Below the pieces are notes generated by a model. The model saw nothing but the letters and a program-made list of their open reading frames with translations. It was not told where the DNA came from and did no database searches. From the NCBI RefSeq assembly GCF_000260985.4, contig NC_017857.3:1922001-1986000 (forward strand): a stretch of DNA of 64,000 nt, written 5' to 3'. The DNA comes from Methylophaga nitratireducenticrescens (GTDB lineage Bacteria; Pseudomonadota; Gammaproteobacteria; Nitrosococcales; Methylophagaceae). Both the position numbers and the translations under genes were made by a program. The stretch's first letter is position 1. Each line of letters opens with the position of its first letter. Positions 9,064 through 63,276 of the stretch are shown here, one piece after another.

Positions 9064-9990
9064 ATGGACCTGAAGACCTTCACATCAAGTAGTCGACGAG
9101 AAAACCGTCAGTTGTTGATAGAAAATAAAGTGACGTTCAATGGTCCAGAAACAGAATTGAGTATTTACGATACTTATCACACTTCTACCGGCGTGGCACT
9201 CAATGCAGATCACCTATTGTATTGCGGAATGGTCAGTGGTCGTAAAGTGATGCATGATCATTACAATGCAACGGGCGAATTATTCGTACCACACGAGTCT
9301 TATGTTATGCCTCCAGGTGAACAGGTTGAAATTGATTTTCCTGATGCCAATGAGCAGCAACCAACTACCTGTTTGACTATCGAAATTTCCAGAGAGCGTA
9401 TTGAAGCTATTTCCAGCCGCATGCGGGATTTGGTAAAAACAGATGTGCCTGAATATAACTGGGAATATCAACCTCGTATTATTCATAAACATCACACTCA
9501 GGATACTCAGCAATTGCTGGAAAAAATGGTTTCATTTTTTATTCGCAATGATCCCGATAAAGAAATGATGGTCGATTTGGGCGTTTCTGAGTTGGTGATA
9601 AGGCTACTACGTGAGCAAGGTCGTGAAGTATTACTGAGTTATTGCAAGCAGGCGCCGGATACCAATGGGATTACCGCTGTACTTCATACACTGGAGCAAA
9701 ATCTATCAGAACCTCTCGACATTGATAAACTCTGTCGCCAAGCCTGCATGAGCCGGAGCCGTTTGTATGTTGAGTTTAAAAAACAACTAGGCTGTACGCC
9801 AGGCGAGTTTCATCAGCAGGTTCGACTAAAATCAGCCGCTGATGCGATACGAGGTGGTCAGAGTATCACTGAGGCTTGTTATAACTACGGTTTTAATGAT
9901 TTGAGTCACTTCAGTCGACGCTTCAGTCATTTTTTTGGTTGTTCACCAAGTGCTTTTCGAAAAGAAAATCTGCCAGACCCAACTGATTAG
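9064..9990 (+). CDS. AraC-family transcriptional regulator, probable activator of the aldehyde dehydrogenase gene
   Basis: A 308-residue protein. An N-terminal ligand-sensing or oligomerisation region spans about residues 1-190. The C-terminal double helix-turn-helix (about 205-303) shows a first helix pair around IDKLCRQACMSRSRLYVEF and the second-HTH signature ITEACYNYGFNDLSHFSRRF, followed by FGCSPSAFRK. It is divergent from the aldehyde dehydrogenase gene. The 262-bp gap holds three copies of a shared motif. The most economical reading is a local regulator of aldehyde or alcohol oxidation; the inducer is unknown. The stop codon lies within the end of repeat element copy A, so the last residues could have been changed by its insertion. 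Confidence 0.88.
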   Translation: MDLKTFTSSSRRENRQLLIENKVTFNGPETELSIYDTYHTSTGVALNADHLLYCGMVSGRKVMHDHYNATGELFVPHESYVMPPGEQVEIDFPDANEQQPTTCLTIEISRERIEAISSRMRDLVKTDVPEYNWEYQPRIIHKHHTQDTQQLLEKMVSFFIRNDPDKEMMVDLGVSELVIRLLREQGREVLLSYCKQAPDTNGITAVLHTLEQNLSEPLDIDKLCRQACMSRSRLYVEFKKQLGCTPGEFHQQVRLKSAADAIRGGQSITEACYNYGFNDLSHFSRRFSHFFGCSPSAFRKENLPDPTD

Positions 9991-10280
9991 GGCTTATTGA
10001 TCTTTCATATCCACCACTGCTGGGACTATTTTTGTGTCCGGCAAGGCGGAAAGCACGCAGTGTAGCCATCCTGCATAAGTGATTGACAAAATGAACCTGG
10101 AACGCATTTGAATAGCTTAGCTGACCACGTAGCGGTGATATACAGGGATGTATTTCATACAACACAGGCGGGTGCAAAAATAGGTTGTGACTGAAAAAGC
10201 GCCACTCGGCGCTCCTCGTGCCTTGATTGACGCTTTTTCAGCTCACAACAGAGGCGGAGATGAAAGATCAACAAGCCCTA
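9988..10280 (-). repeat. MITE-like palindromic repeat, copy A
   Basis: A 293-bp element with ~29-bp terminal inverted repeats of the form TTAGGGCTTRTTGATCTTTC plus ATNTCCRCC, with 3 mismatches between the ends. Read on the minus strand it aligns with copy B at 63007-63276: the ends, the GTTGTGA.CTGAAAA arm, a CAATCAAGGCACGAGGAG block, a TTTCCGCCTTG block and the AAAAATAG arm are conserved. The rest has diverged. Within it, 10185-10250 forms a hairpin with arms GTTGTGACTGAAAAAGCG and its near complement. A second pair of arms (CTATTTTT/AAAAATAG) lies in the other half. No transposase frame is present. The left end includes the araC stop codon. Confidence 0.8.
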
Positions 10281-10383
10281 ATAACCTGCGTTAAGAACGC
10301 TGTCGTGTTGAAACTGTCATAATGAATGTCACTAACTAGATGCATTCACTTTTACACTCTTCGTAAATCATGACAGAAACTCT

Positions 10384-12147
10384 ATGCCGTTATGCCCAAA
10401 ACTTTTCTATAGCAGAATCATCCTGGCGTTTTTTTTGTGTTTATTTCAACCCTTTATGGTTTGGGCTGACACCGAAAAAAATATCAAGATCGAGCTTGAG
10501 GGTATAGAAAAGGACTGGAGTGAAACCATAGTAAATGGTTTGAGTATCAATCGGCAGAAAAACAGTCCGCGATTGGATTCCCGCAGTGTTCAGCGCTTAC
10601 ATGAACAGGCCGTTGAAGAATTGAAGCATATGCTTACCGTGTATGGTTATTATTCCCCCGAAGTTGCAGCCGAGTTAACCGAAACAGATGAAAATAATTG
10701 GTTAGCCAAATATAAAATTGATCTTGGTCAGCCAATTATCATTCGCCAGATTGATGCCGCAGTGGAGGGGGATGCCAAGACGGATCCAGCCTTTACCAAA
10801 ATACTCAATAAACTGCCGCTAAAGATTGGGGACCATTTTGATCATCAGAGTTATGAAAATACCAAAAAAGCCTTTTTGAGACTTGCAGCTGAGCGTGGTT
10901 ATTTTGACGGTGCGTTTGCCTGTAGCAAAGTCAGTGTCGATATAGAAGCCGAAGCTGCCGATATTTGTCTGGTATACGACTCAAAGCAACGCTATCAATT
11001 CGGTGACATTGAATTTCCCGATACCGTTGTCAATGCAAATCTACTTGAGGCTATGACACCAATTGAACCCGGCGAGCCCTTCGATGCCAATAAATTACTC
11101 AGGCTGCGAAATAATTTACAAAACAGTGGTTACTTCGCCACGGTCTCAGCCCAGGCGATGACATCTGTTCGTGAAAAGGCAGAAGTGCCGATAGACGTTT
11201 CGCTGAATGAAAATCTTAAGCATCGCTATAGCGCAGGTATCGGATATGGTACGGATACAGGCGCCAGAATGAGTCTGGGCTGGCAGAACCGGTACGTGAA
11301 TGAGCGTGGACACAGACTCTCGGTTGAAAGCCGTCTATCGCAGATTGCCACTCGGGTTGGGGCTGATTACCAGATGCCATTCTGGAGTGAAAATATTGAT
11401 ACGGTGGGTTTCAATACAGAATATAAACAAGAAGATACTGATACCAGTGAAAGTCGATCCATAGCTGTTGGGACTTATTACAACCGAATGCGTTGGGGCT
11501 GGGAAGAAACCGGTAGCATCAAGTTTTTAAATGAAAGTTTTGATGTGTCTGACGAATCAGCTTCCACTTCATTACTGATTCCCGGTATTGCGTATGCAAG
11601 AACCTGGGCAGATGACACACTTTATACCCGCCAGGGTGGACGAGTCAGTTTGGAACTAAGTGGTGCGGCTGAAGGTATTTTATCTGATATCAGTTTTAGT
11701 CAGATCGTCGTCCGTGGTAAATATATCCAGGGGTTTGGTGAGTCAAACCGAATTATCACCCGTGCGACAGTTGGTGCAACAGAGGTCAATGACTTTTCAC
11801 AATTACCCAGCTCTCTACGTTTCTTTGCTGGTGGTGATAACAGCATTCGTGGTTTTGATTATGAATTATTGGGTCCGGAAAATGATCTGGATGAAGTCAT
11901 TGGGGGGCGTTATCTGGCGGTAGGGAGTGTCGAATATGAACATATGTTTGTTAGAAACTGGGGCGCTGCAATTTTTACTGATTTTGGTAACGCATTCAAT
12001 AGTTGGTCTGATCCAATAGAGTATAGTGTGGGTGTAGGCATTCGCTGGCGTTCACCAGTTGGCTTGATTCGTGTTGATATAGCCAATGGGATTTCAGATG
12101 AAGACAAGCCTTTCGGTTTGCATATCGTGATAGGGCCTGATTTGTGA
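10384..12147 (+). CDS. tamA: Autotransporter assembly factor TamA (Omp85 family)
   Basis: Outer-membrane half of the translocation and assembly module, which helps insert autotransporters and other beta-barrels and, with TamB, takes part in phospholipid transport to the outer membrane. A signal peptide ends near VWAD (about residue 29). About three POTRA domains span 35-265, with KIDLGQPIIIRQI as a typical strand. A 16-strand barrel follows from about 270, with the Omp85 SLRFFAGGDNSIRGFDY loop near 480 and RWRSPVGLIRVDIA near the end. The 587-residue length matches TamA. The stop codon overlaps the tamB GTG start (GTGA). It lies 104 bp after repeat copy A. Confidence 0.92.
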   Translation: MPLCPKLFYSRIILAFFLCLFQPFMVWADTEKNIKIELEGIEKDWSETIVNGLSINRQKNSPRLDSRSVQRLHEQAVEELKHMLTVYGYYSPEVAAELTETDENNWLAKYKIDLGQPIIIRQIDAAVEGDAKTDPAFTKILNKLPLKIGDHFDHQSYENTKKAFLRLAAERGYFDGAFACSKVSVDIEAEAADICLVYDSKQRYQFGDIEFPDTVVNANLLEAMTPIEPGEPFDANKLLRLRNNLQNSGYFATVSAQAMTSVREKAEVPIDVSLNENLKHRYSAGIGYGTDTGARMSLGWQNRYVNERGHRLSVESRLSQIATRVGADYQMPFWSENIDTVGFNTEYKQEDTDTSESRSIAVGTYYNRMRWGWEETGSIKFLNESFDVSDESASTSLLIPGIAYARTWADDTLYTRQGGRVSLELSGAAEGILSDISFSQIVVRGKYIQGFGESNRIITRATVGATEVNDFSQLPSSLRFFAGGDNSIRGFDYELLGPENDLDEVIGGRYLAVGSVEYEHMFVRNWGAAIFTDFGNAFNSWSDPIEYSVGVGIRWRSPVGLIRVDIANGISDEDKPFGLHIVIGPDL

Positions 12148-15100
12148 TAAAACGCGCATTATGGATAATCGCAATTGTATTGCTACTGGTTGTTCCAGCA
12201 GCAATGTATTGGTTATTGATGACAAAGTCCGGTTTTAACACCGCACTCAATTTCACTCAGCAATCTCTTCCAGCACTGTCGATTGATGAAGCAAGTGGCC
12301 GGCTTTATGACGGCATTTATCTGCAAGGTGTCTCGTATGAACCTGAAGAGGGTGATGCGTTTTATATAAAAAGTATTGATGCTCGCTGGCAGTTATGGTC
12401 GTTGCTTTCCAGCCGTTTGATTATTAATCAGTTACATATCGACCGGTTGCAAATTAAACAAAAAGATGGGCTGGATGAAGAAGTTACCGCAGATGAAGAC
12501 TTTACGGTGCCGGATATCAGTCTTCCATTGGCAATTCATTTACGTTCTTTCCGAATAACACATGCAGAACGGCTTAGTCCTCAAGGCGATATAACGCCAT
12601 TGTTCGATCGTTTTGATACGTCATTACGGGTGAACTACGATCGGTTAATTCTTTCATCATTACGACTGAATCGGGATGTTCTGGCGTTTACTTTGCTCGG
12701 CGACGTCAACCTGAGCTCTCCACATGCTACCAATCTGAACTATGGCGCCCGTCTTAATGATCCGGAATTAGGGCTTATTTCTGCTACCGGGACGATTACC
12801 GGTGATTTGCAGCAAATGACGTTACGTCAGCAACTGGGCGAACCGTTCGCTTCTGAGCAAACCTTGATGGTGCGTAATATTCTTGATGATTTGGATTGGC
12901 GATTGACGGCTGAAAGCGGAATGCTGCCATTATCACGCATCCTGAACAATGAAATTGGAGATCTGACAGCATTAAATCTGAATGCCAAAGGTACGTTGGA
13001 TAGTGCTAAGGCAGAGCTCGATTTTCAGTTGCAAGGCTCTGAGACGTTAAATCCACCTGTAGCGGCCAGTTTAAGTGTCAATTCCAACGATTTGCAAAGT
13101 TGGCGGGTAGATCTGATGACGGCAATCAGTCAGAACAGTTTTGCCGAATTGCATGGAAACATCTTCATTGCAGAAGATCCCATGGAAAGTGTTTTTTCCA
13201 TTGACGGCAGCTGGTCAGAATTACAATGGCCCTGGCAGACAGATGCTGAACTGCTGGTAGGGAAGGCTTCTGGTGAATTTTCCGTTGATGGTACTTTGCA
13301 GGACTATCGTTTAATCCTCAGTAGTTCTTTGCAGGCCATGGAACAGGAATGGAATATAACCTCTTACCTACTTGGGGATATGCATAAGGCCTCGATAAGC
13401 TCTCTTGAAATCAAGTCGGCGTTAGGTCAACTAGACGTCAGTGGCGATTTGAGCTGGCAGCCGGAGTTAGCTTATCAATTGGGTGGCGAATGGAAAAACC
13501 TGCAGCTTCCTGCCAGTTTAACCGGCGTGCCGGTAGAAAGTTATATCGGGCAATTTAAGCTTGATGGAGAGAAACAGCTTTTTAATTTAACAGTTGACTC
13601 GGATTTTATTGTCGATGAGATTCCGCTCATTCTCAATCTGGTAGCAACTAGTCCGGAAACAGGCATAACGGATGTTCGGGCCGATACCAAAATAGCTGAT
13701 GGCGGGGCAGGATTCAGTGGCCGTATTAATTGGAAAGAAAAGCTTGCAGTTGATGGCAAACTGACATTGAGACAGCTTGATCCTGCTGCCTTCGCTGCAG
13801 AGTGGCCCGGGCTGATTAGTGGTCAGGTTCAGGTAACGTTTCAGGATAAAGGTGAAAACGAGTTTCATGCCAGTGTGCAGGAATTACATTTAAATGGCCT
13901 GTTACGTGATCGTAATTTCTCACTGGACAGTAATCTGCAAGCAGTAAATACCGATATCGATATCGAAAATCTGCAGTTGAATCTGGGTGATTCGCAATTG
14001 TCATTAAACGGCAAAGTAGAGAAACAACTGGACCTGAGTTGGAGTTTGTCATCCCCCAATCTGCAGGATTTTCATCCCGAATTATTTGGCACGCTGAGTG
14101 GAAAAGGGCAACTTTACGGTGAGCTGGCCAAATTAAAATTAAATGCCAATCTCGACGGTTCAGCTATCCGTTGGGCGGATGAGCTGACTGTAGGGTCTAT
14201 TTCAGCAGATGCCCAGGTGGATCTGACGGATAATCAGCAAAGTAAACTTAATATTCAATCCACGGCGATTACGATTGCACAGCAGAATATCGACTCCATT
14301 GATTTGAGTCTGAATGGCAAGCTTGACCAACATCAACTGGCGCTGGAGATTCAATCCGAAATCGGCACATTATCCAGTCTGTTGCAAGGCAGCCTGGATA
14401 AAGATGACCAATGGTCTGGGCAATTGCAGTCAATGACCGTTACCAATGATATCGCTGGCGACTGGCAGTTACGTGAGCCGGGAGCGATTCAATTATCAGC
14501 CGGTAAACAGATTGTTTCACAACACTGCTGGCAATCTTCTGAGCAGGCACAACTTTGTTTACAGGGTGAAAATACCGCAGATGGTGCACAAACATTAATT
14601 GAAATAAATCAGTTGTCGGTGGCGACTTTCAAGCCTTTAATAGAGAACTACGCTGCATTATCAGGTGAAATTTCCGGTAACCTCCAATTAGCCATGCAAA
14701 CCGGGGGCGATATTACCGGGACGGGTAATTTATCGCTGAATGATGGCATATTAAAACTGCAGTCTGAAGGGATAAGCCAGCAGCAACCGATTGCATTTAA
14801 TGCGGTTGATCTACGCTATCAGCTGACGGCAGAAGAAAGCATGGTTGCCATCACCATTGAGCCGGACATTGCCGGGGTAGAGCCTATTGAAGCCAGATTG
14901 CAAACCGCACCAATCAAAACGGTAATGGTGGCACCCATGGATACGCCAGTCACATTGCAATTGCAGAACTCTATTGAAGACCTTGCCTCATTAAATCTGG
15001 AAACGCTGGCCTTTGATGAACTGGCAGGCAAGCTGGAACTTCATGTTGATATGGAGGGCACTTTCAATCAGCCTGAATTAACGACTGCTATCAGTTTGCG

Positions 15101-16199
15101 TGATGGCCAGATATTTCTGGTCGATATGGGGATTACCCTGACCGAAATTAATGCCGACATCAATGGTGATCCTTTATCCGGCTTGAAAATATTATTACAG
15201 GCTCAGTCAGCAGAAGGTCAGTTGGAAGTGGCTGGTGACTTCACAATGACCGATTCTGATTGGTTGCTGGATGCGACGATTAAGGGGGACAAATTAGAAT
15301 TAATGAACCTGCCTGAGGCCTATGTGATTGCCTCCCCGGATTTAACGCTGAGAATTACTCCTGAAACGGCCAAAATCGGCGGTAAAGTAACAATACCTAC
15401 TGCTGATCTGGCACCCATGGATTTTAATACTACTGTTTCAGCCAGCCCGGATGTTGTCGTGGTTGGACAGGATACGACAGAAGAGAAAATGCGTTTAGCC
15501 ACTGATGTTGATGTGACGGTTGAACTGGGTGAAAACGTCTTGATTCGTGCCCTGGGTTTTAACGGTCGTCTCGCAGGTGATTTACGAATTTATGGCGAAG
15601 CCGGAGAGCTATTATTAGGCGATGGCGAAATTACTGTTCACGACGGTATTTATGCTGCCTATGGTCGCGAATTAAAAATTAATAACGGCAAAGTGCGATT
15701 TGCTGGAACGGCCATTGATAATCCCGATCTGGATATTAAAGCAGTTCGCACAGGCACAGATTATGAAGCGGGTATTCATATCACCGGACCAGCCAACAAT
15801 CCACAAGCCACATTATTTTCAAACCCATCCATGAGCCAGGAAGATGTACTGTCGTATATTGTGTTGGGACGACCATTAGGGCAGGCAAGTGCTGCTGATG
15901 CGGCGATGTTGGCCTCAGCTGCCACCAATCTGGGGATTTCCAATGGCAATGCTGTCAGTGAAAAGATTGCCAGCACCTTTGGTCTGGATACTGTTGAGTT
16001 CACTGGAGAAAGTCCGGATAACGCCGCCGTGCAAATTGGCAAATATCTGTCGCCTAAACTTTATTTAGGCTATGGCATTGGTATTTTTGAGCCGGTCAGC
16101 ACCGTTCAATTGCGTTATACATTAAGTAAAATATGGACCTTGCAAGCCGAGTCCGGCACCCAAAGTGGTGTGGATCTACTGTATATCTACGAACGATAA
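12144..16199 (+). CDS. tamB: Translocation and assembly module protein TamB (DUF490)
   Basis: A 1351-residue inner-membrane-anchored protein that spans the periplasm to TamA and forms a long beta-taco groove, thought to carry phospholipids. There is one N-terminal membrane helix (about 5-27). A long repetitive beta-rich region follows, with many Leu/Asp/Gly strands and no catalytic motifs. The C-terminal DUF490 domain covers about 980-1351 and includes LKINNGKVRFAGTAIDNP, HITGPANNPQATLFS and LSYIVLGRPLG, then GLDTVEFTGESPDNAAVQIG. The GTG start overlaps tamA by 4 bp, giving the canonical tamA-tamB operon. An intrinsic terminator directly follows the stop. Confidence 0.95.
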   Translation: MIKRALWIIAIVLLLVVPAAMYWLLMTKSGFNTALNFTQQSLPALSIDEASGRLYDGIYLQGVSYEPEEGDAFYIKSIDARWQLWSLLSSRLIINQLHIDRLQIKQKDGLDEEVTADEDFTVPDISLPLAIHLRSFRITHAERLSPQGDITPLFDRFDTSLRVNYDRLILSSLRLNRDVLAFTLLGDVNLSSPHATNLNYGARLNDPELGLISATGTITGDLQQMTLRQQLGEPFASEQTLMVRNILDDLDWRLTAESGMLPLSRILNNEIGDLTALNLNAKGTLDSAKAELDFQLQGSETLNPPVAASLSVNSNDLQSWRVDLMTAISQNSFAELHGNIFIAEDPMESVFSIDGSWSELQWPWQTDAELLVGKASGEFSVDGTLQDYRLILSSSLQAMEQEWNITSYLLGDMHKASISSLEIKSALGQLDVSGDLSWQPELAYQLGGEWKNLQLPASLTGVPVESYIGQFKLDGEKQLFNLTVDSDFIVDEIPLILNLVATSPETGITDVRADTKIADGGAGFSGRINWKEKLAVDGKLTLRQLDPAAFAAEWPGLISGQVQVTFQDKGENEFHASVQELHLNGLLRDRNFSLDSNLQAVNTDIDIENLQLNLGDSQLSLNGKVEKQLDLSWSLSSPNLQDFHPELFGTLSGKGQLYGELAKLKLNANLDGSAIRWADELTVGSISADAQVDLTDNQQSKLNIQSTAITIAQQNIDSIDLSLNGKLDQHQLALEIQSEIGTLSSLLQGSLDKDDQWSGQLQSMTVTNDIAGDWQLREPGAIQLSAGKQIVSQHCWQSSEQAQLCLQGENTADGAQTLIEINQLSVATFKPLIENYAALSGEISGNLQLAMQTGGDITGTGNLSLNDGILKLQSEGISQQQPIAFNAVDLRYQLTAEESMVAITIEPDIAGVEPIEARLQTAPIKTVMVAPMDTPVTLQLQNSIEDLASLNLETLAFDELAGKLELHVDMEGTFNQPELTTAISLRDGQIFLVDMGITLTEINADINGDPLSGLKILLQAQSAEGQLEVAGDFTMTDSDWLLDATIKGDKLELMNLPEAYVIASPDLTLRITPETAKIGGKVTIPTADLAPMDFNTTVSASPDVVVVGQDTTEEKMRLATDVDVTVELGENVLIRALGFNGRLAGDLRIYGEAGELLLGDGEITVHDGIYAAYGRELKINNGKVRFAGTAIDNPDLDIKAVRTGTDYEAGIHITGPANNPQATLFSNPSMSQEDVLSYIVLGRPLGQASAADAAMLASAATNLGISNGNAVSEKIASTFGLDTVEFTGESPDNAAVQIGKYLSPKLYLGYGIGIFEPVSTVQLRYTLSKIWTLQAESGTQSGVDLLYIYER

Positions 16200-16225
16200 A
16201 AAAGCCCTGTAAACACAGGGCTTTT
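16198..16225. terminator. Bidirectional terminator between tamB and dksA
   Basis: A perfect 10-bp stem AAAGCCCTGT/ACAGGGCTTT with an AAAC loop. It is flanked by A-rich sequence on the left and CTTTT on the right, so it can serve tamB (+) and dksA (-). The minus-strand T tract is the longer. Confidence 0.85.
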
Positions 16226-16268
16226 GGGACCGACCTTTACTCAGTATGAGGTGAGTCTGAATATTCAA

Positions 16269-16691
16269 TCAGGCGCGGTTCTTTTCGCGGATTTCATCCA
16301 GTGTTTTGCAGTCAATGCAGAGTGTTGCTGTTGGGCGGGCCTCCAAACGTCTAATACCGATATCAACCCCACATGATTCGCAAAAACCGTAATCACCTTT
16401 ATCCAGATCAATAAGGGATTCTTCGATTTTTTTGATCAGCTTACGTTCACGATCACGTGTACGTAATTCCAAAGTAAACTCTTCTTCCTGTGTAGCCCGG
16501 TCATTAGGGTCCGGGAAGTTTGCTGCTTCGTCCTGCATATGATGAACGGTGCGGTCAACTTCTGCCATTAGTTGCGAACGCCATTTTTCGAGAATATCTC
16601 GAAAATGTTTTACCATATCTTTGCTCATATATTCTTCGTTTTCACCCGGTTGGTACGGAGTGAAACTAACATCATTTTGGTTCGGGTCCAT
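16269..16691 (-). CDS. dksA: RNA polymerase-binding transcription factor DksA
   Basis: Binds the RNA polymerase secondary channel and, with ppGpp, resets promoters during the stringent response. The coiled-coil tip motif DPNDRA, which holds the two key Asp residues, is present. So is the C4 zinc site: C104, C107, C125 and C128 in the 140-residue form (CESCG, CIDC). I chose the ATG at 16691 because TGAGG sits 9 bases upstream. In-frame ATGs at 16706, 16751 and 16757 would lengthen the N-terminus up to 162 residues; E. coli DksA has 151. The 110-bp gap to the divergent phosphatase gene would hold both promoters. Confidence 0.93.
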   Translation of the reverse strand: MDPNQNDVSFTPYQPGENEEYMSKDMVKHFRDILEKWRSQLMAEVDRTVHHMQDEAANFPDPNDRATQEEEFTLELRTRDRERKLIKKIEESLIDLDKGDYGFCESCGVDIGIRRLEARPTATLCIDCKTLDEIREKNRA

Positions 16692-16801
16692 GTTGGCAAA
16701 CCTCATACTTTCTAAAAACAAGGGCGCATCTATACCAGATGCTTCGGGCATGTGCAAAATAATTGCGCTATTTTACCCTATTTTTAAAATTAAAAAGACG
16801 A

Positions 16802-18752: not shown

Positions 18753-18816
18753 GTTTAGTCTTTCCGAGGCGTCGTGACGTTAAACCAAACTAAAAACACT
18801 TATCGTCAGGTAACGA

Positions 18817-19026: not shown

Positions 19027-19047
19027 AAGAAACTGATAACTAAAACT

Positions 19048-19073: not shown

Positions 19074-19086
19074 ATTGGTTTTAGGA

Positions 19087-51807: not shown

Positions 51808-51847
51808 TCTGCCAAAGTCACCAATGAAAATTTAACGGAGTAGGGTT

Positions 51848-56000: not shown

Positions 56001-56210
56001 TTAACCACTATTGGCGGGCTCACGCCATTACTATTTGAAACATCGCCTCAGGCGCAGTTTTTGATTCCAATGGCTGTATCGATTTCGTTTGGTTTGATGT
56101 TTGCCACGGTGTTAGTGTTACTGGTCATTCCGGCATTATTGTCGTTCCATGAAAGCATTGCCGAAAATTTTGCCAAACTTCGTCACGGCAAGACTCAAAC
56201 CACCGAATAA
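53073..56210 (+). CDS. RND efflux transporter permease (AcrB/HAE1 superfamily)
   Basis: A 1045-residue proton-driven inner-membrane pump. Twelve helices are arranged in two repeats: TM1 at about 18-36, large periplasmic loop 1, TM2-6 at about 335-500, TM7 near 535, periplasmic loop 2, and TM8-12 at about 870-1030. The proton-relay aspartate pair is in LGIIVDDAIVVGEDAF (TM4). The matching LSGIVVNNAIILVTFF segment is in TM10. It fits a hydrophobe/amphiphile (HAE) type rather than a heavy-metal type, but the substrate is unknown. It sits between adaptor (8-bp overlap) and outer-membrane factor (10-bp gap), giving a full tripartite operon. Confidence 0.94.
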   Translation: MNNTVKRDFIGVFAQHRVAANLLMMVMILAGVLSLNRINTQFFPTFALDIISVSIEWRGASAEDVAESITRQVEQELRSVDYVKKMTSTSSYGMARVTLEFVEKSDMGQALDQVKDRIAQIRNLPTDSEEPEVTLVTNYESVARILITSETGDLASLRYLAHDIEHELLDRGISRINISGLPLEEIAIQLDKTKLEALGLDLDEVADRIAQLSQDLPAGEIGNDESTRQIRSLDQGRDVQAFAEFPVQSDFANGLVKLEDVATIERRPLRKQMNLFYQGQPAIELELQRTENADSLESARVLEKWLDEKAGTLPDGVELKVYDASWQLIKERINLLLKNGLGGLLLVLGILFLFLHGRVAFWVAVGIPVSFMAAIAVLYALGGSINMISLFGLIMSLGIIVDDAIVVGEDAFAHYQSGEPSLTASEGGARRMLAPILSSSLTTISSFIPLMLISGVIGNILFDIPFVVICVIIASLIECFLILPGHLRHSFQNIHHAKPSAIRARLDNAFNYLRDDLFRPLVTNAVKNRGLTVSIAMALLIISFGLLAGGRISFNFFPSPEGTTVLANARFVAGTPRSESDKFLQHLTATLQQTDQQWDQPLVDVATSKLGAAGTAGGMSAAQVDDRFASIQVELTSPDQRDVRNQTFINAWREKIVMPAGIETFTISERRGGPPGSDIDIRLTGGTTDNLKAAATEVIEVLQRYPGVSAIEDDLPYGQSQLIYRLKEQGEVLGLTVENVGRQLRSAYDGRLVQIFQDGDDEVEVRVMFPDSQRNTQASLDDFMIRLPDGGSVPLDSVVHFDARRGFDVLRHTDTRLAVHVTATVDSQVTNNNNILADLQEEFLPDLMARYGIQVVFEGRAEEQADTIGDMKQGTLLAFALIYIILAWVFASYGWPLVVMTAIPFGLIGALVGHWLLNIDLTILSLFGIFGLSGIVVNNAIILVTFFKNLREKGLETQNAIIEASVLRLRAVLLTSLTTIGGLTPLLFETSPQAQFLIPMAVSISFGLMFATVLVLLVIPALLSFHESIAENFAKLRHGKTQTTE

Positions 56211-56220
56211 GGGGTAGAAC

Positions 56221-57441
56221 ATGAAACTGCGTATGCTGTGTTTATTATTCGGACTGAGCTCAAGTTTGTTCAGTTATTCCGTTAATGCTGAGGAAGCGGA
56301 TCCCATCACGCTGAAAACACTGACGGATTACGTTTACAGCCAGCACCCTGCCAGACAAGCTGAATCCAGCATGGATGCGCTGGCACAAAGTCGTGCAGAT
56401 CTTGCTGGCAAAATATTTGCCGAGCCTTTAAGTTTATCGGTAAATCATTTTAATGATGTCATTGGTAGTGGTGAGGGGCTGCAGGAATGGGAATCTTCAG
56501 TAGAAATGCCGATTTGGCTACCCGGTGAGAAGCGTCAACAACAGAATCTGTCGCGCCATCTGGCCGCAGAACTGCCTTACTATCAACAACGGATTCGCCT
56601 TGATGCCTCGGCACAGGTAAGACGTCATGTCTGGCTAGTGATGCTTTCTGCAGTCAAAGTTCGCCATGCCGAAACATTACGGGACAATGCCCGAAACTTG
56701 CTAAAGAATGTTGAAAATCGGGTAGAGGGGGGAGATTTAGCCAGCTCAGAAGCTCTGCTGGCAAAAAGTCATCATCTGGAAATGCAGTCTCAATTGGCTT
56801 CAGCAAAGATGGATTTGCAAAAAAGCTTAAATCAGTACCAGTACCTGACCGGACAGCAGGTATTACCCGATGTGATTGAAGAAAACTTACCGGCGTCGAC
56901 TGAAATTGATAAAGCCCATCCGTTATTAGCTGAGTTGGAGCAACAAATTGCCCGACAACGCAGTGAAATGGCTAATGCGCGGTATGACAATGTGCAGCAT
57001 CCCAGCCTGTCTGTTGGAGTCAAACGTGAACGGGATGAACATGCCGATCCCTACAACAACAGCGTTGGTGTGGGCGTCAGCTTTGCCTTGAACGATAAAC
57101 AATATCAGCAACCGGCTATTGCACAGGCCAGCCGGCAGTTAGCCGATTTGCAGATTGCCCAGCAGCAACAGAAACGTCAGCTTGAAGCTGACTTGCTTGC
57201 CGCGATGGATACCCTTAAAACGTTGCAACAGAGACAGACGCTATTGAAAGAACAATATGCGGTCAGTCAGCAATATGTTGATATGCAACAACGCAGTTTT
57301 GATATGGGTGGAGTGGATTTAACCAGTTTTTTACGTAGTCAGGAAGTTGCTGATAAACATCGTCACCAACTACTGCAACTGGAAATCGAAATTCAACAAC
57401 AGATTGCACAGATTAATCAGATTGCCGGACGTACTCTGTAA
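56221..57441 (+). CDS. TolC-family outer-membrane efflux protein
   Basis: A 406-residue outer-membrane factor. The signal peptide ends at about residue 23 (YSVNAEE). The long coiled helices of the tunnel are visible, with Q-rich stretches such as LADLQIAQQQQKRQLEADL and repeated AxxxxxL heptads. It is shorter than TolC (~470 aa). The GxxxxSEALLAKSHHLEMQSQLASAK region and VDLTSFLRSQEVADKHRHQL fit the repeated OEP domain. It is the third gene of the RND operon and probably the dedicated exit duct. Its stop is 15 bp from the convergent lapG stop. Confidence 0.88.
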   Translation: MKLRMLCLLFGLSSSLFSYSVNAEEADPITLKTLTDYVYSQHPARQAESSMDALAQSRADLAGKIFAEPLSLSVNHFNDVIGSGEGLQEWESSVEMPIWLPGEKRQQQNLSRHLAAELPYYQQRIRLDASAQVRRHVWLVMLSAVKVRHAETLRDNARNLLKNVENRVEGGDLASSEALLAKSHHLEMQSQLASAKMDLQKSLNQYQYLTGQQVLPDVIEENLPASTEIDKAHPLLAELEQQIARQRSEMANARYDNVQHPSLSVGVKRERDEHADPYNNSVGVGVSFALNDKQYQQPAIAQASRQLADLQIAQQQQKRQLEADLLAAMDTLKTLQQRQTLLKEQYAVSQQYVDMQQRSFDMGGVDLTSFLRSQEVADKHRHQLLQLEIEIQQQIAQINQIAGRTL

Positions 57442-57456
57442 CAAAAAACGTTATCT

Positions 57457-58125
57457 TCAATCCGCAACGGTTTCGGCCCGCATTCTGGCAGCTAAGTCTT
57501 CCCACAATGATAAGCGTGAGGCATCACCTACCCGTTGTCCTTCGCCACGGGATTTGGCCAGCCATAACCCTGTGCCATTAAAACTGTAAACAGGTGTCAG
57601 ATCCTGACGACGACTAGCCGGTTGAATTTCATTAATCAGATTGTCCAGTACCAGCGGAATGGCACGTTTATTTTCAAAATAGGTTAAAACCATATGTGCC
57701 TGATTCAGGTCAATGGCTTTAACATAAGTGATTCGCAGTTTATCTTCATCCACACCGAGCTGTTTCAGAGTGAAGTATTTGGCAATGGAATAATCTTCAC
57801 AGTCACCCGCACCAATGGAAAGCATTTCAATCGGCGTAGCCCAGTAATCCTCTTTATCCCATAACAAAATATCATCAACAAACAGGACATTACTGTTAAA
57901 AAAATCGTTCACTACCGCGAGTTTTTCCCGCTCTGTTAAATCCTGATTTTCCTGCATCAATATTTGCCAGGCTTCAACGCGTTGTCTGGCATCGCTATCG
58001 TATTCATTTTCAATTCGTTGCAATAACGCTTCTGAAATCAGCAATTCTGCCAGCAACGGAACAGAAAACGGCAGCCACCAGACCAGCAATAAGATTAATA
58101 CAACAGGTTTTAGCCGAAGCAACAT
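57457..58125 (-). CDS. lapG: Periplasmic cysteine protease LapG (BTLCP family)
   Basis: A 222-residue transglutaminase-like cysteine peptidase that, in Pseudomonas, cleaves the biofilm adhesin LapA from the cell surface when c-di-GMP falls. The signal or anchor segment is about 8-28. The catalytic triad is C109 (GAGDCEDYSIAKYF), H144 (NQAHMVLTYF) and D161 (LVLDNL). The C-to-H and H-to-D spacings (35 and 17) suit the family. Acidic residues around D107 and E110/D111 match the LapG calcium site. It starts 3 bp after the lapD stop, the usual operon. No LapA-like adhesin or its type I exporter is in the window. Confidence 0.92.
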   Translation of the reverse strand: MLLRLKPVVLILLLVWWLPFSVPLLAELLISEALLQRIENEYDSDARQRVEAWQILMQENQDLTEREKLAVVNDFFNSNVLFVDDILLWDKEDYWATPIEMLSIGAGDCEDYSIAKYFTLKQLGVDEDKLRITYVKAIDLNQAHMVLTYFENKRAIPLVLDNLINEIQPASRRQDLTPVYSFNGTGLWLAKSRGEGQRVGDASRLSLWEDLAARMRAETVAD

Positions 58126-58128
58126 TGA

Positions 58129-60030
58129 TTAACGACTAATACCGAACAAGCCAGCCTGTTGCAACCAGAGAAAGTCTTGTTCGTCTTTTGCACTTTCTGC
58201 CAATACTCTTACTTCCAGTAAGCGGGCAATTTCCTGAATGATATCGAGCAAGTCCGGTTTATTGGTATTACTACGGATATCTGTGGTCAGATCGCGTGCC
58301 AGGCGAATGTAATCAATATGCAGATCTTTCAAAAGATTCACCGGAATCACATCACTGCTATAACGTTTTAATAAACTGTGAGCGCCTAACTGTCTGACAA
58401 AGATGCTGAAATTGGTGAATGTATCCAGATCTTTGGCCGCAGCATAAGCGGTCACACTAAAAGCTAACAGGGCAGGTGATAAGCCTGATTGAATCACTGC
58501 TTTGCCAAGCCATTGACGAAAGTCTGCTGAAGCAATTGATGCCAGAGAAAGGTTGATTGTGACCGGGGCTGGATTGGACTCTTTGGCCATTAAGTCCAAC
58601 ACCTTTTGCACAATATGTTTGTCCAGCGTTTCAACCAGATCAAAAGCCTCAGCCATTGAGAAGAAGGTACCAATGGGCAGCAAATCACCGTTTGCATCGC
58701 GAACTTCGGTAAAGGCTTCCCGCATTACCAGGTGGGGTTTTGCCTTATCACTGTAGTTGTAAGCCTGGTTGGTAAAGGTAATCATCGCCGAATCTGTATT
58801 AATCACCTGTTCGATAGTCGCTTTCCAGCTCATTTCAGTCATTGAGCTTAAGGTGTTTTCCTTAATGTAGAAAGCATTGGCCTCAATCAACCGTGCTTGC
58901 TCGTAGGCCTCAATCAAGGCTGGCATCAGTCGTTCAATTTCACTGCTGCGTTCGTAGGAAACAATCCCCATATGCAGCAAGTCGCTATGCTCATATTGTT
59001 GACCCAGTTCGCTGGCCAGAGCCTGAATATGTTCGGCAATCTGAGTTATATCCTCGATATTGCTATCGGTTGTCTGAACAGCAAATTCTGATCCGTACCA
59101 GCGATAATTGCGCACATTGGCAAAGGGTAATTGTTGCAACTGGCTGGCAAAATCTATCAGCAATGCATCAACTGCATTTTTGCCCTGATTTTTCACCACT
59201 GCGCTCAAGTCATCGAATTTGATGTAGATAACATGGCCGAACTCGCCAATGGAGAGCGCCTGTTTTATATCGACATTGAACATTTGCTGATTTAATAAGT
59301 TTGTCAGGGGATCACGATTCAAATTGTCATTGAGCTTATCAAGTCGCAAATTCAGGTGATGAATGGTTTTGCCAATTTTGGTTGACATGCTGTTCATGGA
59401 TTTGGCGACTGAGCGTACTTCTCTGGTCCAGGGTAAATTTTCAATAACGGTAAATTTCCCTGCAGAAATATCATTTGCCTGTTCAGTTATGGCTTTTAAT
59501 GGGCGTAAGGTCATTCTCAGCACCACCAACAACAGCAAAATCGCGCCTAGCAGAATTAACAATGAAAATTTGAGTGTGGATTTAAATTGTTCGTATAGCT
59601 TGAGGTAACCATAACCAGGATTACTGGTGACTTGCAGGGTACCAGCAATATTCCAGCCGGTACTGAGTTCACTGACAGCAGTGGCGGTTTCGATGGGAAA
59701 AAACCGGATCAGCCAGCTGGGTACACCACGCACTTCATCGGGATTGGTCAGCCGAATCAATTCATTGCCATCCACATCCAGTAACCGCATTTCCTTGTAA
59801 TAACCGGTATCAAAAATTGCGTTCATCATGGTCCGTAAAATCGGATCAGTCTCATCAGCCATATGCGGGCTGAGTGATAAACCAAGTGAGGTTGCGGTGT
59901 CCTGTACATGCACTTCCGATTCGCCCTGCAGATAACTACGGATATTGTCCATGCTCATGACAAAATTTACTGAGAACACAATCAGAAAAATCAGTGTTAG
60001 CAAGATAAGTAATTGTTTTGATAAAGACAT
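58129..60030 (-). CDS. lapD: LapD-type c-di-GMP receptor (degenerate GGDEF-EAL)
   Basis: Inner-membrane receptor that binds c-di-GMP through its EAL domain and holds LapG away from the adhesin. About 633 residues from ATG 60030, which follows GAGG; the frame is open to 60162, but that extension has no family support. Two membrane helices (about 6-26 and 150-172) flank the LapD/MoxY-type periplasmic domain. A HAMP linker follows (RMTLRPLKAITEQANDI). The GGDEF site reads YGSEF and the EAL site EAF, and EAL metal-binding motifs such as DDFGxG are lost. Both domains thus appear catalytically dead, as in LapD. It is co-operonic with lapG. Confidence 0.92.
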   Translation of the reverse strand: MSLSKQLLILLTLIFLIVFSVNFVMSMDNIRSYLQGESEVHVQDTATSLGLSLSPHMADETDPILRTMMNAIFDTGYYKEMRLLDVDGNELIRLTNPDEVRGVPSWLIRFFPIETATAVSELSTGWNIAGTLQVTSNPGYGYLKLYEQFKSTLKFSLLILLGAILLLLVVLRMTLRPLKAITEQANDISAGKFTVIENLPWTREVRSVAKSMNSMSTKIGKTIHHLNLRLDKLNDNLNRDPLTNLLNQQMFNVDIKQALSIGEFGHVIYIKFDDLSAVVKNQGKNAVDALLIDFASQLQQLPFANVRNYRWYGSEFAVQTTDSNIEDITQIAEHIQALASELGQQYEHSDLLHMGIVSYERSSEIERLMPALIEAYEQARLIEANAFYIKENTLSSMTEMSWKATIEQVINTDSAMITFTNQAYNYSDKAKPHLVMREAFTEVRDANGDLLPIGTFFSMAEAFDLVETLDKHIVQKVLDLMAKESNPAPVTINLSLASIASADFRQWLGKAVIQSGLSPALLAFSVTAYAAAKDLDTFTNFSIFVRQLGAHSLLKRYSSDVIPVNLLKDLHIDYIRLARDLTTDIRSNTNKPDLLDIIQEIARLLEVRVLAESAKDEQDFLWLQQAGLFGISR

Positions 60031-60246
60031 AAGAAACAACCTCATTATGAAAGGTATCATCAGGCTGGAGTCAGCATGAGACAGCTGTTTTACAGCATCA
60101 TCCAGTAATCGGGCTAACATTACCTGTGCAACTGCCGTCAGGCAAGCTAAATCCAGCACCATGCAAGCAAAGCAATTGACTTTTGGCTTTTGTTATCAGT
60201 GACCGATTGATACGATCACCTGTCCTCCATTCAAGGTAGTCTTCCG

Positions 60247-61161
60247 ATGTTTATGGTGTTGGCGCAAATGGCCGTATTAATTGCCTGTGGTGCACTATGG
60301 CAGGCTTTGGCCCCCAGACACATCCCGGCGCTGGCTCATCGCCGGGCACTGACCGATCTGGTGTTTTATATTCTGTTGCCAGCCATGGTGATTGATGTGA
60401 TCTGGCAAGCGCCACTGGATATCACTTCAATGAAGATATCGCTGTTGGCAATGAGTGGTCTGGCGACAGCAGCCTTGTCTATATGGCTGGTATTAAAAGT
60501 GATTCCGGTGACCAATGCCCAAAAGGGCGCGTTGATCCTGGCGGCAACTTTTCCCAACGTCACCTATCTTGGCCTGCCAGTGTTGGATCAGGTGCTTGGC
60601 AGCTGGTCGAATGCTATTATCCTGCAATACGATTTATTTGCCTGTACACCGGTGTTAATGACGGTCGGGATGCTAGTGGCCGAATATTACGGCAGTCACG
60701 ATCAGTCAGCGCACCCATTAAAAAGCATGCTGAAGATCCCGCCTTTATGGGCAGTGACCATTGCAGTGCTATTAAATTTGCTTAATGTGGAACGCCCTGA
60801 GTTTATTCATTCTGCCTTACAAACGCTTTCAGGTGGCGTGGTGCCTCTAATGCTGATAGCACTGGGGATGAGCATTCGGTGGCAGAGCCTGCGATTGAAC
60901 CTGTTACCACTATTACTACCAGTGGCAGCAATTACCTTATTTATGGCGCCAGCGGGTGTTTGGCTGTTGACTCAGGTCCTGAGCTTGCCGACCGATATTA
61001 TGACTACGGTGATATTATCAGCTGCCATGCCGACGATGGTATTTGGGATTGTGATCTGTGAACGCTACGGTTTGGATACATCGCTTTACGCGGCAGCAGT
61101 GACATTAACGACCGTGCTCTGCATGGCGAGTTTACCGCTATGGTTTTACTGGATTAACTGA
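60247..61161 (+). CDS. AEC-family (auxin efflux carrier-like) membrane transporter
   Basis: A 304-residue inner-membrane carrier of the bile/arsenite/riboflavin-type AEC family. About ten hydrophobic helices span the whole length in two five-helix repeats. The crossover-helix regions FYILLPAMVIDVI (about 41-53) and ILSAAMPTMVFGIVICERYG are typical, as are FPNVTYLGLPVLDQVLG (about 102-118) and VPLMLIALGMSI. The substrate cannot be predicted; bacterial members move malonate, malate and other organic anions. It is divergent from lapD, and its 3' end overlaps the next minus-strand gene by 16 bp. Confidence 0.88.
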   Translation: MFMVLAQMAVLIACGALWQALAPRHIPALAHRRALTDLVFYILLPAMVIDVIWQAPLDITSMKISLLAMSGLATAALSIWLVLKVIPVTNAQKGALILAATFPNVTYLGLPVLDQVLGSWSNAIILQYDLFACTPVLMTVGMLVAEYYGSHDQSAHPLKSMLKIPPLWAVTIAVLLNLLNVERPEFIHSALQTLSGGVVPLMLIALGMSIRWQSLRLNLLPLLLPVAAITLFMAPAGVWLLTQVLSLPTDIMTTVILSAAMPTMVFGIVICERYGLDTSLYAAAVTLTTVLCMASLPLWFYWIN

Positions 61162-61892
61162 TTGGACCAGACAAAACCGGCTTGATCAACAGCCTGTTTA
61201 ATAAATTGCATGGCTTGTTCAACCTGATCCAAATCCCCACGCAGACTGAATTCGATATGGGGGGGGTCACCGAGATGAGGCAGACTGGATAATTTCAGAA
61301 GTGGATAATCGTTAACAATCTGATTCATTACCGGTAACAAATCCGACTCACGTCCACGTTGTACAAAAATAGTCTGCTCCGTGGCAGGACGTTGATTTTT
61401 TAAATGTGGATATAAATTATCTAAAACCCACTCCACCATCGGCCAGGCCATCTCCGGAAAGCCCGGTGTAAAGTGATGATTTGCATAAGAAAATCCCGGT
61501 ATGCGATTGATTGTATTAGGAATTGTTCTCGATCCTTCTGGCAGGTAGCCCATCAATATACGGTTGGGATAAGCATCTTTACCAAAACACGCCTCGATTT
61601 CAGCAGTTGCCTCAGGGTGAGGGATTAACGGTACATCGGCAATTTTGGCGACTGTCTGGCGGGTTCTGTCATCGGGCGTTGCACCGATTCCACCGAAGCT
61701 GAACACCAGATCTTCACTGCTCATGCTGTAACGCAAAGCCCGTTCAAGTTGTTGTGGATCATCGCCAACAATCAAGGTCCAGCTGAGTTCAAGACCGCGT
61801 TTGGCCAGCATGATTTGCAATTGATTGAAATGCTTGTCCTGACGTTTACCGCTGAGAATTTCATCACCAATTATGACCGCACCAATATGCAT
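61146..61892 (-). CDS. Molybdopterin-binding (MoCF) domain protein, CinA N-terminal-like
   Basis: A 248-residue protein. Its first ~165 residues are a MoCF_biosynth/CinA-N domain: GAVIIGDEILSGKRQDKH at the start, then DLVFSFGGIGATPDDRTRQTVAKI (spanning about 61-84), and GYLPEGSRTIPN. The CinA C-terminal nicotinamide-nucleotide deamidase domain is absent, so the protein is not a full CinA. Related domains bind molybdopterin or act on ADP-ribose/NAD derivatives; the true reaction here is unknown. CGGAG precedes the ATG. It lies 2 bp after the truncated haemoglobin gene and is probably co-translated with it. Confidence 0.85.
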   Translation of the reverse strand: MHIGAVIIGDEILSGKRQDKHFNQLQIMLAKRGLELSWTLIVGDDPQQLERALRYSMSSEDLVFSFGGIGATPDDRTRQTVAKIADVPLIPHPEATAEIEACFGKDAYPNRILMGYLPEGSRTIPNTINRIPGFSYANHHFTPGFPEMAWPMVEWVLDNLYPHLKNQRPATEQTIFVQRGRESDLLPVMNQIVNDYPLLKLSSLPHLGDPPHIEFSLRGDLDQVEQAMQFIKQAVDQAGFVWSNQLIQ

Positions 61893-61894
61893 AT

Positions 61895-62290
61895 TTACTC
61901 CGATTCCTGTCGATTACGCATAAAATCTGCGGTCTGGGCAAATGAACTCATTAGTTGTGTAGTAAATAACGGATCGAGATCCATTGTGTTTAGTGCCTCC
62001 GTCATACAATAAAGCCATTGATCACGCTCTTCTATACCAATGGAAAAGGGTAAATGTCTAGATCTCAATTTTGGATGTCCATACTTTTCCGTATACAAAG
62101 GAGGGCCGCCTAACCAACCAGTCAAAAACATATACAGTTTATCTTCACTAAGTTGTATTTCTTGCGGATGCAAGCTCCGAATGAGCTGGGTTTGCGGCGT
62201 CTCGGTCATAATCTTATAAAAGGTGTGACAAAGTTTACGAACGGCTGATTCTCCGCCAATGCGTTCATAAGGTGTTGCAATATCGGTCAT
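61895..62290 (-). CDS. Group II truncated haemoglobin
   Basis: A 131-residue trHbII (GlbO/YjbI family) haem protein implicated in oxygen, NO or peroxide chemistry. Signatures: the N-terminal PYERIGGESAVRKLCHTFY, LTGWLGGPPLYTEKYGHPKLRSRH containing the proximal histidine region and the family's GWxGGP motif, then LPFSIGIEERDQWLYCM with the conserved Trp (position G8). The start is ATG 62290; a TTG at 62305 would add five residues. It heads a two-gene operon with the MoCF-domain gene and is divergent from the fae-like gene. Confidence 0.93.
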   Translation of the reverse strand: MTDIATPYERIGGESAVRKLCHTFYKIMTETPQTQLIRSLHPQEIQLSEDKLYMFLTGWLGGPPLYTEKYGHPKLRSRHLPFSIGIEERDQWLYCMTEALNTMDLDPLFTTQLMSSFAQTADFMRNRQESE

Positions 62291-62353
62291 GCTAAATCCA
62301 AGCAAAAAAATGTCAGTTTACTCTGCATCAATATTGTCATAAAGGTTTATAAG

Positions 62354-62382
62354 GTTGCGACATGTGGTTCAGACCGGGATAA
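62354..62382 (+). promoter_or_regulatory. Probable sigma70 promoter of the fae-like gene
   Basis: -35 TTGCGA (62354-62359), a 17-bp spacer and -10 GATAAT (62377-62382), about 40 bp before the ATG. The ribosome site AAGGAG lies at about 62408-62413. Strength and spacing suggest a well-expressed gene. Confidence 0.6.
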
Positions 62383-62422
62383 TGATTTGTTTTCTTAGTA
62401 CTAATTCAAGGAGCAATAGCTT

Positions 62423-62974
62423 ATGAGTGAGAGAATTGTGATGCGAACTGGTGAAGCATTGATCGCTGATGGCCCACCATTGACTGCTGCGGAACCAGAA
62501 GTTGTTATTGGCGAATTGGATGGACCAGTAGGAACTGCCTTTGCTAATTTAATGGGTGATCAGGTCAAAGGTCATTCACGTGTTTTAGCGCTGATGAATA
62601 CAGATGTTCAGGTTCGTCCTGCGACAATTATGGTCAGTAAAGTAACTGTTAAAAACACTGCCTATACCAATATCCTGATGGGGACAGTTCAAGGTGCAAT
62701 TGCCAATGGTGTATTGGATGCTGTACGTAACGGCACTATCCCTAAAGAAAAAGCCAATGATTTAGGCATCATCGTGTCAGTCTGGTTAAACCCTGGTATT
62801 ACTGGCGTTGAAAACCTGGATCACGAAGCGTTATTTGATGTGCATCGTCGTGCGACTACTCGCGCCATCGAGAAAGCGATGAATCATGAACCAAGCATTG
62901 ATTATCTTCTGGAAAACCAGGATAAGCTGGTTCATAAGTATTATCAGAAAGAACTGGATGCGAAAAAATCATAA
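62423..62974 (+). CDS. Formaldehyde-activating enzyme (Fae) homologue
   Basis: A 183-residue Fae-family protein. Fae catalyses condensation of formaldehyde with tetrahydromethanopterin in methylotrophs. Shared landmarks: TGEALIADG at 9-17, VVIGELDGPVGTAFANL (27-43), LALMNTDVQVRPATIMVSKVT, GTVQGAIANGVLDAVRNGTIP and DLGIIVSVWLNP. Between GEAL and VVIG, where I recall the catalytic histidine of Methylorubrum Fae1, this protein has no histidine (PPLTAAEPE). It may therefore be a Fae2/Fae3-like paralogue with another role. It is a single gene with a good promoter and Shine-Dalgarno and no other tetrahydromethanopterin genes nearby. The end is followed by repeat copy B and then a terminator. Confidence 0.85.
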   Translation: MSERIVMRTGEALIADGPPLTAAEPEVVIGELDGPVGTAFANLMGDQVKGHSRVLALMNTDVQVRPATIMVSKVTVKNTAYTNILMGTVQGAIANGVLDAVRNGTIPKEKANDLGIIVSVWLNPGITGVENLDHEALFDVHRRATTRAIEKAMNHEPSIDYLLENQDKLVHKYYQKELDAKKS

Positions 62975-63006
62975 TTGAATTTTTTGCATTGGTTTGTGGT
63001 CTTAAT

Positions 63007-63276
63007 AAGGGCCTGTTGATCTTTCATAACCGCCTCTGTTGTGACTGAAAATGTACCAATCAAGGCGCGAGGAGTGAAGTTTAGTCACTCTAAATAAATG
63101 ACGAGCAACGCAGAGTAGTGCATTTTCAGCCACAACCCGAAGGGCTGGGACTATTTTTCCGCCCTACCGCGTTGGAAATGACTTATGTAGGACAACTACA
63201 TCGCATCATTTCCGCCGCCTTGTTGGATGAAAAATAGCCTCCAGCAGTGGTGGTTATGAAAGGTCAACAGGCCCTA
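63007..63276 (+). repeat. MITE-like palindromic repeat, copy B
   Basis: A 270-bp element. The left end AAGGGCCTGTTGATCTTTC and the reverse-complemented right end TAGGGCCTGTTGACCTTTC both continue ATAACCRCC, giving ~29-bp terminal inverted repeats. Hairpin 1 (about 63039-63137) has arms GTTGTGACTGAAAA and TTTTCAGCCACAAC. Hairpin 2 (about 63146-63245) has arms GCTGGGACTATTTTT and AAAAATAGCCTCCAGC, with nested GGAAATGA/TCATTTCC and TGTAG/CTACA pairs. It is homologous to copy A in opposite orientation. It contains no open frame and fills most of the 418-bp gap between the fae-like gene and the next gene. Confidence 0.82.

What the first reader, a model, noticed from the sequence alone, without database searches (positions are those of the whole stretch)
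9988..63276. A ~270-293 bp double-hairpin repeat with 29-bp terminal inverted repeats, present twice in opposite orientation
Copies at 9988-10280 (minus orientation) and 63007-63276 (plus) share their ends (GGGCYTRTTGATCTTTCAT), a CAATCAAGGC.CGAGGAG block, a TTTCCGCC block and both pairs of hairpin arms. The interiors have diverged. Each copy is two long stem-loops set end to end inside one inverted repeat. Conserved arms with compensating interior change suggest structure is selected or needed for mobility. It has no coding capacity, so it would need a transposase in trans, like a MITE. It could also act as an mRNA 3'-end stabiliser, since both copies lie just after a gene.
Basis: partly seen in the sequence, partly recalled or inferred. 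Interest (0 to 1): 0.7.

Follow-up and report, generated by a model that had tools for sequence, protein, structure and literature searches.

The report
Widespread mobile double-hairpin DNA element
The two repeats are copies of a small jumping DNA element that cannot move by itself, is present many times in this bacterium, and carries a folded two-hairpin interior that recurs, with matching stem changes, in many other bacteria, which hints that the fold itself is kept for a reason not yet known.

Summary
The two copies belong to a family with 160 matching ends in this 3.1 Mb genome against 2 in the control; the genus is Methylophaga. It is a MITE: its ends match those of an IS5-family, ISSpu10-like insertion sequence, one intact copy of which lies in the same genome. 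One exact empty site shows a TA duplication, and related species lack other copies cleanly. None of 76 entries with usable flanks lies inside a gene.

A model of one arm matches 72 of 369 gammaproteobacterial genomes, with outer ends that differ between lineages. Stems change in compensating pairs: 26 of 31 pairs, 536 cells against 168 in shuffles.

What the fold does is unproved. Across genera the apical stem has 57 G-U against 10 A-C, and copies lean to one orientation between genes, 19 to 6. But within Methylophaga the transcribed strand shows no wobble excess. No search made here found it described.

The parts
9988..10280 (-). copy A, 289 bp plus the flanking TA on each side; rearranged copy, P2 arm on the minus strand
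9988..9990 (+). stop codon TAG of ORF 9064-9990, made of the target TA and the first G of copy A
9990..10008 (+). copy A terminal repeat on the low-coordinate side
   Evidence: 0 mismatches
10173..10250 (-). copy A shortened P2 arm
   Evidence: E 1.8e-13
10260..10278 (-). copy A terminal repeat on the high-coordinate side
   Evidence: 0 mismatches
63007..63276 (+). copy B, 266 bp plus two flanking bases on each side; 33 bp after ORF 62423-62974
63009..63038 (+). copy B outer stem P1, left strand (terminal repeat in its first 19 bases)
63039..63135 (+). copy B arm P2 (module on the plus strand)
   Evidence: model match 63037-63146, E 1.6e-30
63136..63144 (.). mini-hairpin CCCGAAGGG at the centre of the inverted pair
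63145..63244 (-). copy B arm P3 (same module on the minus strand)
   Evidence: model match 63134-63246 on minus, E 3.7e-10
63245..63274 (+). copy B outer stem P1, right strand (terminal repeat in its last 19 bases)

Best explanation
The repeats are a non-autonomous DNA transposon (a MITE). A transposase of the IS5 family, IS427/ISSpu10 type, would recognise the GGGYYTRTTKATCTTTCAT ends and insert the element at TA, duplicating it. SHOWN by sequence: many copies, matching ends on an intact IS in the same genome, a TA duplication at one exact empty site, sites without the element in relatives, intergenic location. SHOWN by sequence: the interior is an inverted pair of one hairpin module that recurs across Gammaproteobacteria behind different outer ends, with compensating changes in its stems. 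INFERRED: the module is maintained because it folds as a single strand, most likely in read-through mRNA between genes where a closed three-way junction is tolerated or useful, and different IS5-type transposases have moved it in different lineages. NOT SHOWN: transposition, transcription or any effect of the fold.
For: Copies: 160 ends against 2 control, 127 against 0. Partner: 282-aa transposase in an 881-bp element with like ends, IS5 family by NF033580, PF13340 and PF01609; 22 of 27 checked IS loci (of 80 returned) have both ends within 4 mismatches of the same repeat, next to TA; ISSpu10 has the same ends. Mobility: TA duplication; site B absent in five relatives, site A in three. Interior: 31 of 86 pairs change on both sides against 15.2 shuffled in 34 copies; arm model in 72 of 369 genomes, 62 of 271 genera; 26 of 31 pairs, 536 cells against 167.7; second arm found on the opposite strand in 24 of 42 sources. 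Single strand: apical G-U 57 against A-C 10; orientation 19 to 6, p 0.015.
Against: No transposition was observed. Close intact transposases were seen only in G000 and G015 of 58 genomes, so most element-rich relatives hold no visible partner. Within Methylophaga no transcribed-strand excess of G-U: 27 against 21 in the outer stem, 49 against 45 overall, 24 against 27 without three fixed columns, sense more stable in 24 of 49. Orthologous copies show 37 one-sided and no two-sided changes in seven comparisons. Basal stems have G-U 17 against A-C 22. A5 was aligned to the model, cells are not independent events, and the share of strongly conserved columns in P2 is no higher in loops than in stems (11 of 34 against 15 of 44).
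Confidence: 0.7

Rival explanations
1. A MITE whose fold has no function. Arms match because replication switches template between the arms of a hairpin and copies one arm onto the other, so compensating changes arise without selection.
For: Arms match within an element (0.864) more than between elements (0.783; 0 of 2000 permutations). G-U equals A-C in Methylophaga. The mechanism is published: homogenisation of arms and inversion of the spacer (PMC8604942 abstract; PMC8794818 passages).
Against: No two-sided change in seven orthologous comparisons, though time may be too short. It does not by itself explain internal-loop motifs shared across genera, the apical wobble excess in both arms or the orientation lean.
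Confidence: 0.3
2. The fold is needed at the DNA level, as a hairpin or cruciform that helps transposition or replication, and RNA plays no part.
For: No transcribed-strand signal in Methylophaga; the inverted-pair layout puts one module on each strand; G-T is also better tolerated than A-C in DNA (recalled).
Against: IS copies with the same ends lack the interior and their own two ends may differ, so the transposase does not seem to need the arms. Orientation lean relative to genes.
Confidence: 0.2
3. A vertically inherited intergenic RNA gene or regulatory RNA family, not mobile.
For: Conserved fold, intergenic, one orthologous copy 99.6% identical between species whose flanks are 92% identical.
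Against: Sites without the element, TA duplication, very many copies, ends shared with an IS. No Rfam family matches the element.
Confidence: 0.03

Closest known systems
IS5 family, IS427 group / ISSpu10-type insertion sequences
   Same: Same ends and TA context; 2-bp direct repeats and 832-865 bp length are listed for most IS427-group elements of Paracoccus (PMC3281130, passages).
   Different: The repeats carry no transposase and have a structured interior that the IS lacks.
Bacterial MITEs: Correia/NEMIS, RUP, ERIC
   Same: Small, intergenic, terminal inverted repeats, TA at the ends, no gene of their own (PMC2229807, passages).
   Different: Here the ends match an IS in the same genome, and the interior is a two-arm module shared by many genera behind different ends.
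CerM-associated intergenic repeats (CIR) of Caulobacter and Brucella
   Same: Two arms with a phylogenetically conserved predicted RNA fold (PMC2229807, passages).
   Different: Alphaproteobacterial, two arms joined by a linker and, per that review, without the closing end-to-end stem seen here; no sequence comparison was made.
Double-hairpin elements of mitochondrial genomes
   Same: Intergenic double hairpins (search listing only; their mobility is recalled).
   Different: Mitochondrial; size and lack of an IS link are recalled. Analogy only.

Membership tests
MITE | short, no transposase gene, terminal inverted repeats | tested here: met
   TIR-bounded copies of 54-613 bp
MITE | target-site duplication | tested here: met
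   TA at one exact empty site; 20 of 35 listed copies have TA on both sides, 22 left, 29 right
MITE | multi-copy, with empty sites in relatives | tested here: met
MITE | ends shared with an autonomous element that moves it | tested here: met
   ends shared; that the IS actually moves the repeat is not testable here
MITE | observed transposition in trans | not testable with these tools
   needs a trap-plasmid assay
IS5 family, IS427/ISSpu10 type (the partner IS) | IS5-type DDE transposase | tested here: met
   NF033580 271.9 bits against cut-off 110; PF13340, PF01609
IS5 family, IS427/ISSpu10 type (the partner IS) | 2-bp TA duplication of the IS itself | tested here: inconclusive
   TA flanks on both sides of 21 of 22 matched copies, the other reaching the end of stored DNA; no empty site of the IS was examined
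REP/BIME with RAYT transposase | 20-40 bp palindromes tagged by GTAG or CGTC, linked to RAYT genes | not tested
   set aside because the element is larger and has IS5-type ends; RAYT genes were not searched (definition from listings of PMC3733652 and PMC2817692)
Rfam RNA families | match to a curated model | tested here: not met
   window: only a tRNA; 10 further loci: no element match above a gathering score

The most novel reading that the evidence does not exclude
One structured cassette, an inverted pair of a hairpin module, has long been carried across the Gammaproteobacteria by diverged IS5-type transposases, each lineage supplying its own ends. The cassette is selected as a folded single strand (RNA or extruded DNA), and the inverted-pair layout means that whichever strand is read carries one working module. 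That would be a new class of structured mobile nucleic acid rather than a decayed IS.
Probability: 0.3. Interest if true: 0.85.

Novelty: new variant of a known kind. Interest (0 to 1): 0.62.

Why it matters
Bacterial MITEs are usually read as decayed insertion sequences. Here the interior, not only the ends, recurs in about a fifth of the sampled gammaproteobacterial genomes with compensating stem changes, and no search made here found it described. It makes an open question testable: whether covariation in long hairpins needs selection or can come from template switching during replication. Orthologous sites with gain, loss and exchange of hairpin blocks are at hand for that test.

Tried and rejected
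RNA-level constraint within Methylophaga was tested by G-U against A-C on the transcribed strand and by sense against antisense stability; no signal. In one search the copies without same-direction neighbours, read in locus orientation, gave 26 G-U and 13 A-C. The cross-genus wobble excess is therefore called suggestive only.

Inversion in place: three orthologous sites looked inverted. For L013 against G017 the elements also differ by 19% with 8 two-sided changes, so exchange with another copy or an independent insertion is as likely. The 82-bp L088 is nearly palindromic, so its orientation is uncertain. At site A the G021 contigs break inside the element. I do not claim inversion.

Other transposases as partner: the 10 loci returned of 21 PF01609 places (L061-L070) showed no matching pair of ends, nor did six further IS5-like copies (L212-L217); the remaining places were not all checked.

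Element interior near the 80 IS loci: none found in the stored flanks. One element (L367) against phage records: none.

Literature: no Methylophaga MITE paper; no hit for the modular/IS5 wordings; no paper with the first set of sequence strings; 9 papers hold a string of the second set, judged off-topic by title and abstract start, none opened.

Rows dropped: (stability test) and 116 leave out nested detections (L031:1535, L041:1533, L075:1163, L102:1663, L074:834); one search also L022, L044 and L287. The divergent L102 was aligned but left out of A3. One search used copies of 140-650 bp; 3 of 28 own-genome co-directional copies could not be oriented; L022 and L044, weak detections, were kept there. 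The 76 entries include those five nested detections and weak ones.

Full report
1. The observation. The end motif is found 4 times in the window against 0.16 expected. Both copies fold far better than shuffles as single-stranded DNA (z -5.97 and -10.08). Copy B is a regular 266-bp element; copy A is a rearranged 289-bp one.

2. Copies in the genome. The window is part of a single contig of 3,135,000 bases. G015, a genome of the same genus, shares 3,795 bases at 100% with a contig titled Methylophaga sp. OBS4, so the genus is Methylophaga. Searches with the two copies gave 74 and 109 matching pieces. The end pattern with up to 3 mismatches occurs 75 + 85 times against 1 + 1 for the reversed pattern; a wider pattern with one mismatch gives 59 + 68 against 0 + 0. 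Both listings stop at about 100 places. A script over the loci then held, relatives included, bounded 90 entries; these include two insertion sequences and a few chance pairs. The elements proper run from 54 to 613 bp, and 35 entries are 262-266 bp.

3. A mobile element. Of 35 copies listed, 22 have TA before the left end, 29 TA after the right end, 20 both. At G000:2185537 relative G017 reads GCC-TA-GCGAC where G000 reads TCC-TA-element-TA-GCGAC, so the duplication there is TA. Site B lacks the element in five aligned relatives, though its junction is not base-exact. Site A lacks it in three and holds a 149-bp copy in G017. In the 20-kb stretch, sites differ in occupancy between G017, G021 and G016. 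At one site G016 keeps a 20-base remnant, as if deleted between two short repeats (my reading).

4. The partner. A 282-aa ORF at G000:465964-466812 lies in an 881-bp element between GGGCTTGTTGATCTTTGAT and a less perfect right end, with TA on both sides. The protein is an IS5-family transposase. Of 80 related loci from named genomes I checked 27; 22 have both ends within 4 mismatches of the same repeat. All 22 left ends follow TA and 21 right ends precede TA; the other reaches the end of stored DNA. The annotated ISSpu10 has the same ends. Of 58 genomes, 7 have a match at E 1e-20 or better, but close intact copies only G000 and G015. Most element-rich relatives thus hold no visible partner.

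5. Where copies sit. Of 76 entries with usable flanks (own genome and relatives, five of them nested detections) none lies inside an ORF; 28 and 25 lie between genes of one direction, 11 divergent, 11 convergent, 1 undetermined (ORFs called mechanically). In 13 of 52 own-genome copies a neighbouring stop codon is the target TA plus the element's first G, copy A included.

6. Architecture. In 34 copies of 262-266 bp (alignment A3), 93.2% of cells in the proposed fold are paired. 31 of 86 pairs change on both sides against 15.2 in shuffles; slid versions reach 5-10. The fold is an outer stem of 30 bp with one fixed mismatch, arm P2, a CCCGAAGGG mini-hairpin and arm P3. A covariance model of P2 also finds P3 on the opposite strand (in 24 of 42 sources at E 1e-10), so the element is an inverted pair of one module. 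Long copies carry further short hairpins. One such hairpin occurs at 20 places in the genome against 0 control. At one orthologous site G000 has a 66-bp block of hairpins that G017 lacks, the rest being 98.5% identical. Some short copies keep little more than the outer stem.

7. Beyond the genus. DNA search found related pieces in 19 of 58 genomes, the own genome among them. One is G054, another family of the class; five bounded copies there (of nine loci) share loop motifs but have other stems and other ends. A model built from 19 arms of the Methylophaga family and 5 of G054 matches 72 of 369 gammaproteobacterial genomes at E 0.001 (62 of 271 genera; 55 of 369 at 1e-10 by my count of the table), with at most 10 candidates scored per genome. 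In one search, 21 of 30 loci (one from the own genome) gave an outer inverted repeat of 219-287 bp; 3 gave implausibly long pairs and 6 none. Plasmids of Halomonas, Azotobacter chroococcum, Methylophaga frappieri, Pseudomonas aeruginosa and Ca. Magnetococcus massalia carry it too, the last outside the Gammaproteobacteria. The ends differ between lineages. Some resemble ends of other IS5-type elements: ISAba31 (one end TAGGGTCTGTTGACATTT) the Azotobacter and Magnetococcus elements, and a Psychrobacter IS (GTGTCATCAATTA) the element of G183. This was judged by eye, not scored, and the IS were not from the same genomes.

8. Selection or mechanism. In the 66 arms of A5, 96.1% of cells pair against 68.6% in shuffles, 26 of 31 pairs change on both sides, and the covariation score is 0.707 against 0.176 at most in slid controls. 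A5 was aligned to the model's structure, which favours it. In module orientation the apical stem has 57 G-U against 10 A-C (P2 27 to 8, P3 30 to 2), the basal stem 17 against 22; cells are not independent events. Internal-loop columns are on average a little more conserved than stem columns (0.84 against 0.76 in P2, 0.77 against 0.70 in P3), but columns conserved at 0.9 or more are as frequent in P2 stems as in P2 loops (15 of 44, 11 of 34), unlike P3 (7 of 44, 18 of 34). Between genes of one direction P2 lies in the sense direction in 19 of 25 oriented own-genome copies (p 0.015), 8 of 13 in relatives and 7 of 10 in other genera.

9. Against an RNA role. In Methylophaga the transcribed strand has no excess of G-U, and sense is more stable than antisense in only 24 of 49 copies. 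In seven orthologous comparisons there are 37 one-sided and no two-sided changes, 17 of the 37 in one recombined copy; an eighth pair, which looks replaced, had 8 two-sided and 10 one-sided. Element and flank divergence follow no steady rule: 99.6% against 92% at one site, 89% against 97-99% at another. Template switching between hairpin arms is a published way to obtain matched arms without selection (PMC8794818 passages, PMC8604942 abstract).

10. Verdict. It is a MITE of an IS5-type transposase; this part is firm apart from the missing transposition assay. The structured interior as a class-wide module is well supported by sequence. Its role is not settled; I weigh a single-strand role, most likely in read-through mRNA, somewhat above neutral arm copying.

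Noticed in passing
G000:C1:2195083-2195414 (L016) against G017 (L297): Same insertion site in two species; G000 has an extra 66-bp block of short hairpins inside one arm, the rest is 98.5% identical.
   Followed up: partly
orthologous sites L078/L092, L020/L345, L218/L219, L013/L322: Copies at the same site in different species have different interiors or sizes, as if interiors are exchanged between copies.
   Followed up: partly
window 9988-9990 and 12 further own-genome copies: The insertion sits in a stop codon and rebuilds it as TAG from the target TA and the element's first G.
   Followed up: partly
G000:C1:2178756-2179175 (L295): A damaged second relative of the partner transposase, frame interrupted.
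   Followed up: no
20 places in G000, for example 101116-101139: A perfect short hairpin GTGAGATACATSSATGTATCTCAC recurs; many of the places coincide with long copies of the element, but not every place was checked.
   Followed up: partly
L421, Ca. Magnetococcus massalia plasmid MAGMO_p1: The arm module occurs outside the Gammaproteobacteria, on a plasmid.
   Followed up: no
window 1130-1217, minus strand: A tRNA gene by Rfam.
   Followed up: no
G000, nine copies such as 849725-850222: A different PF01609 insertion sequence with a 313-aa frame in eight of its nine near-identical copies and 274 aa in the other.
   Followed up: no
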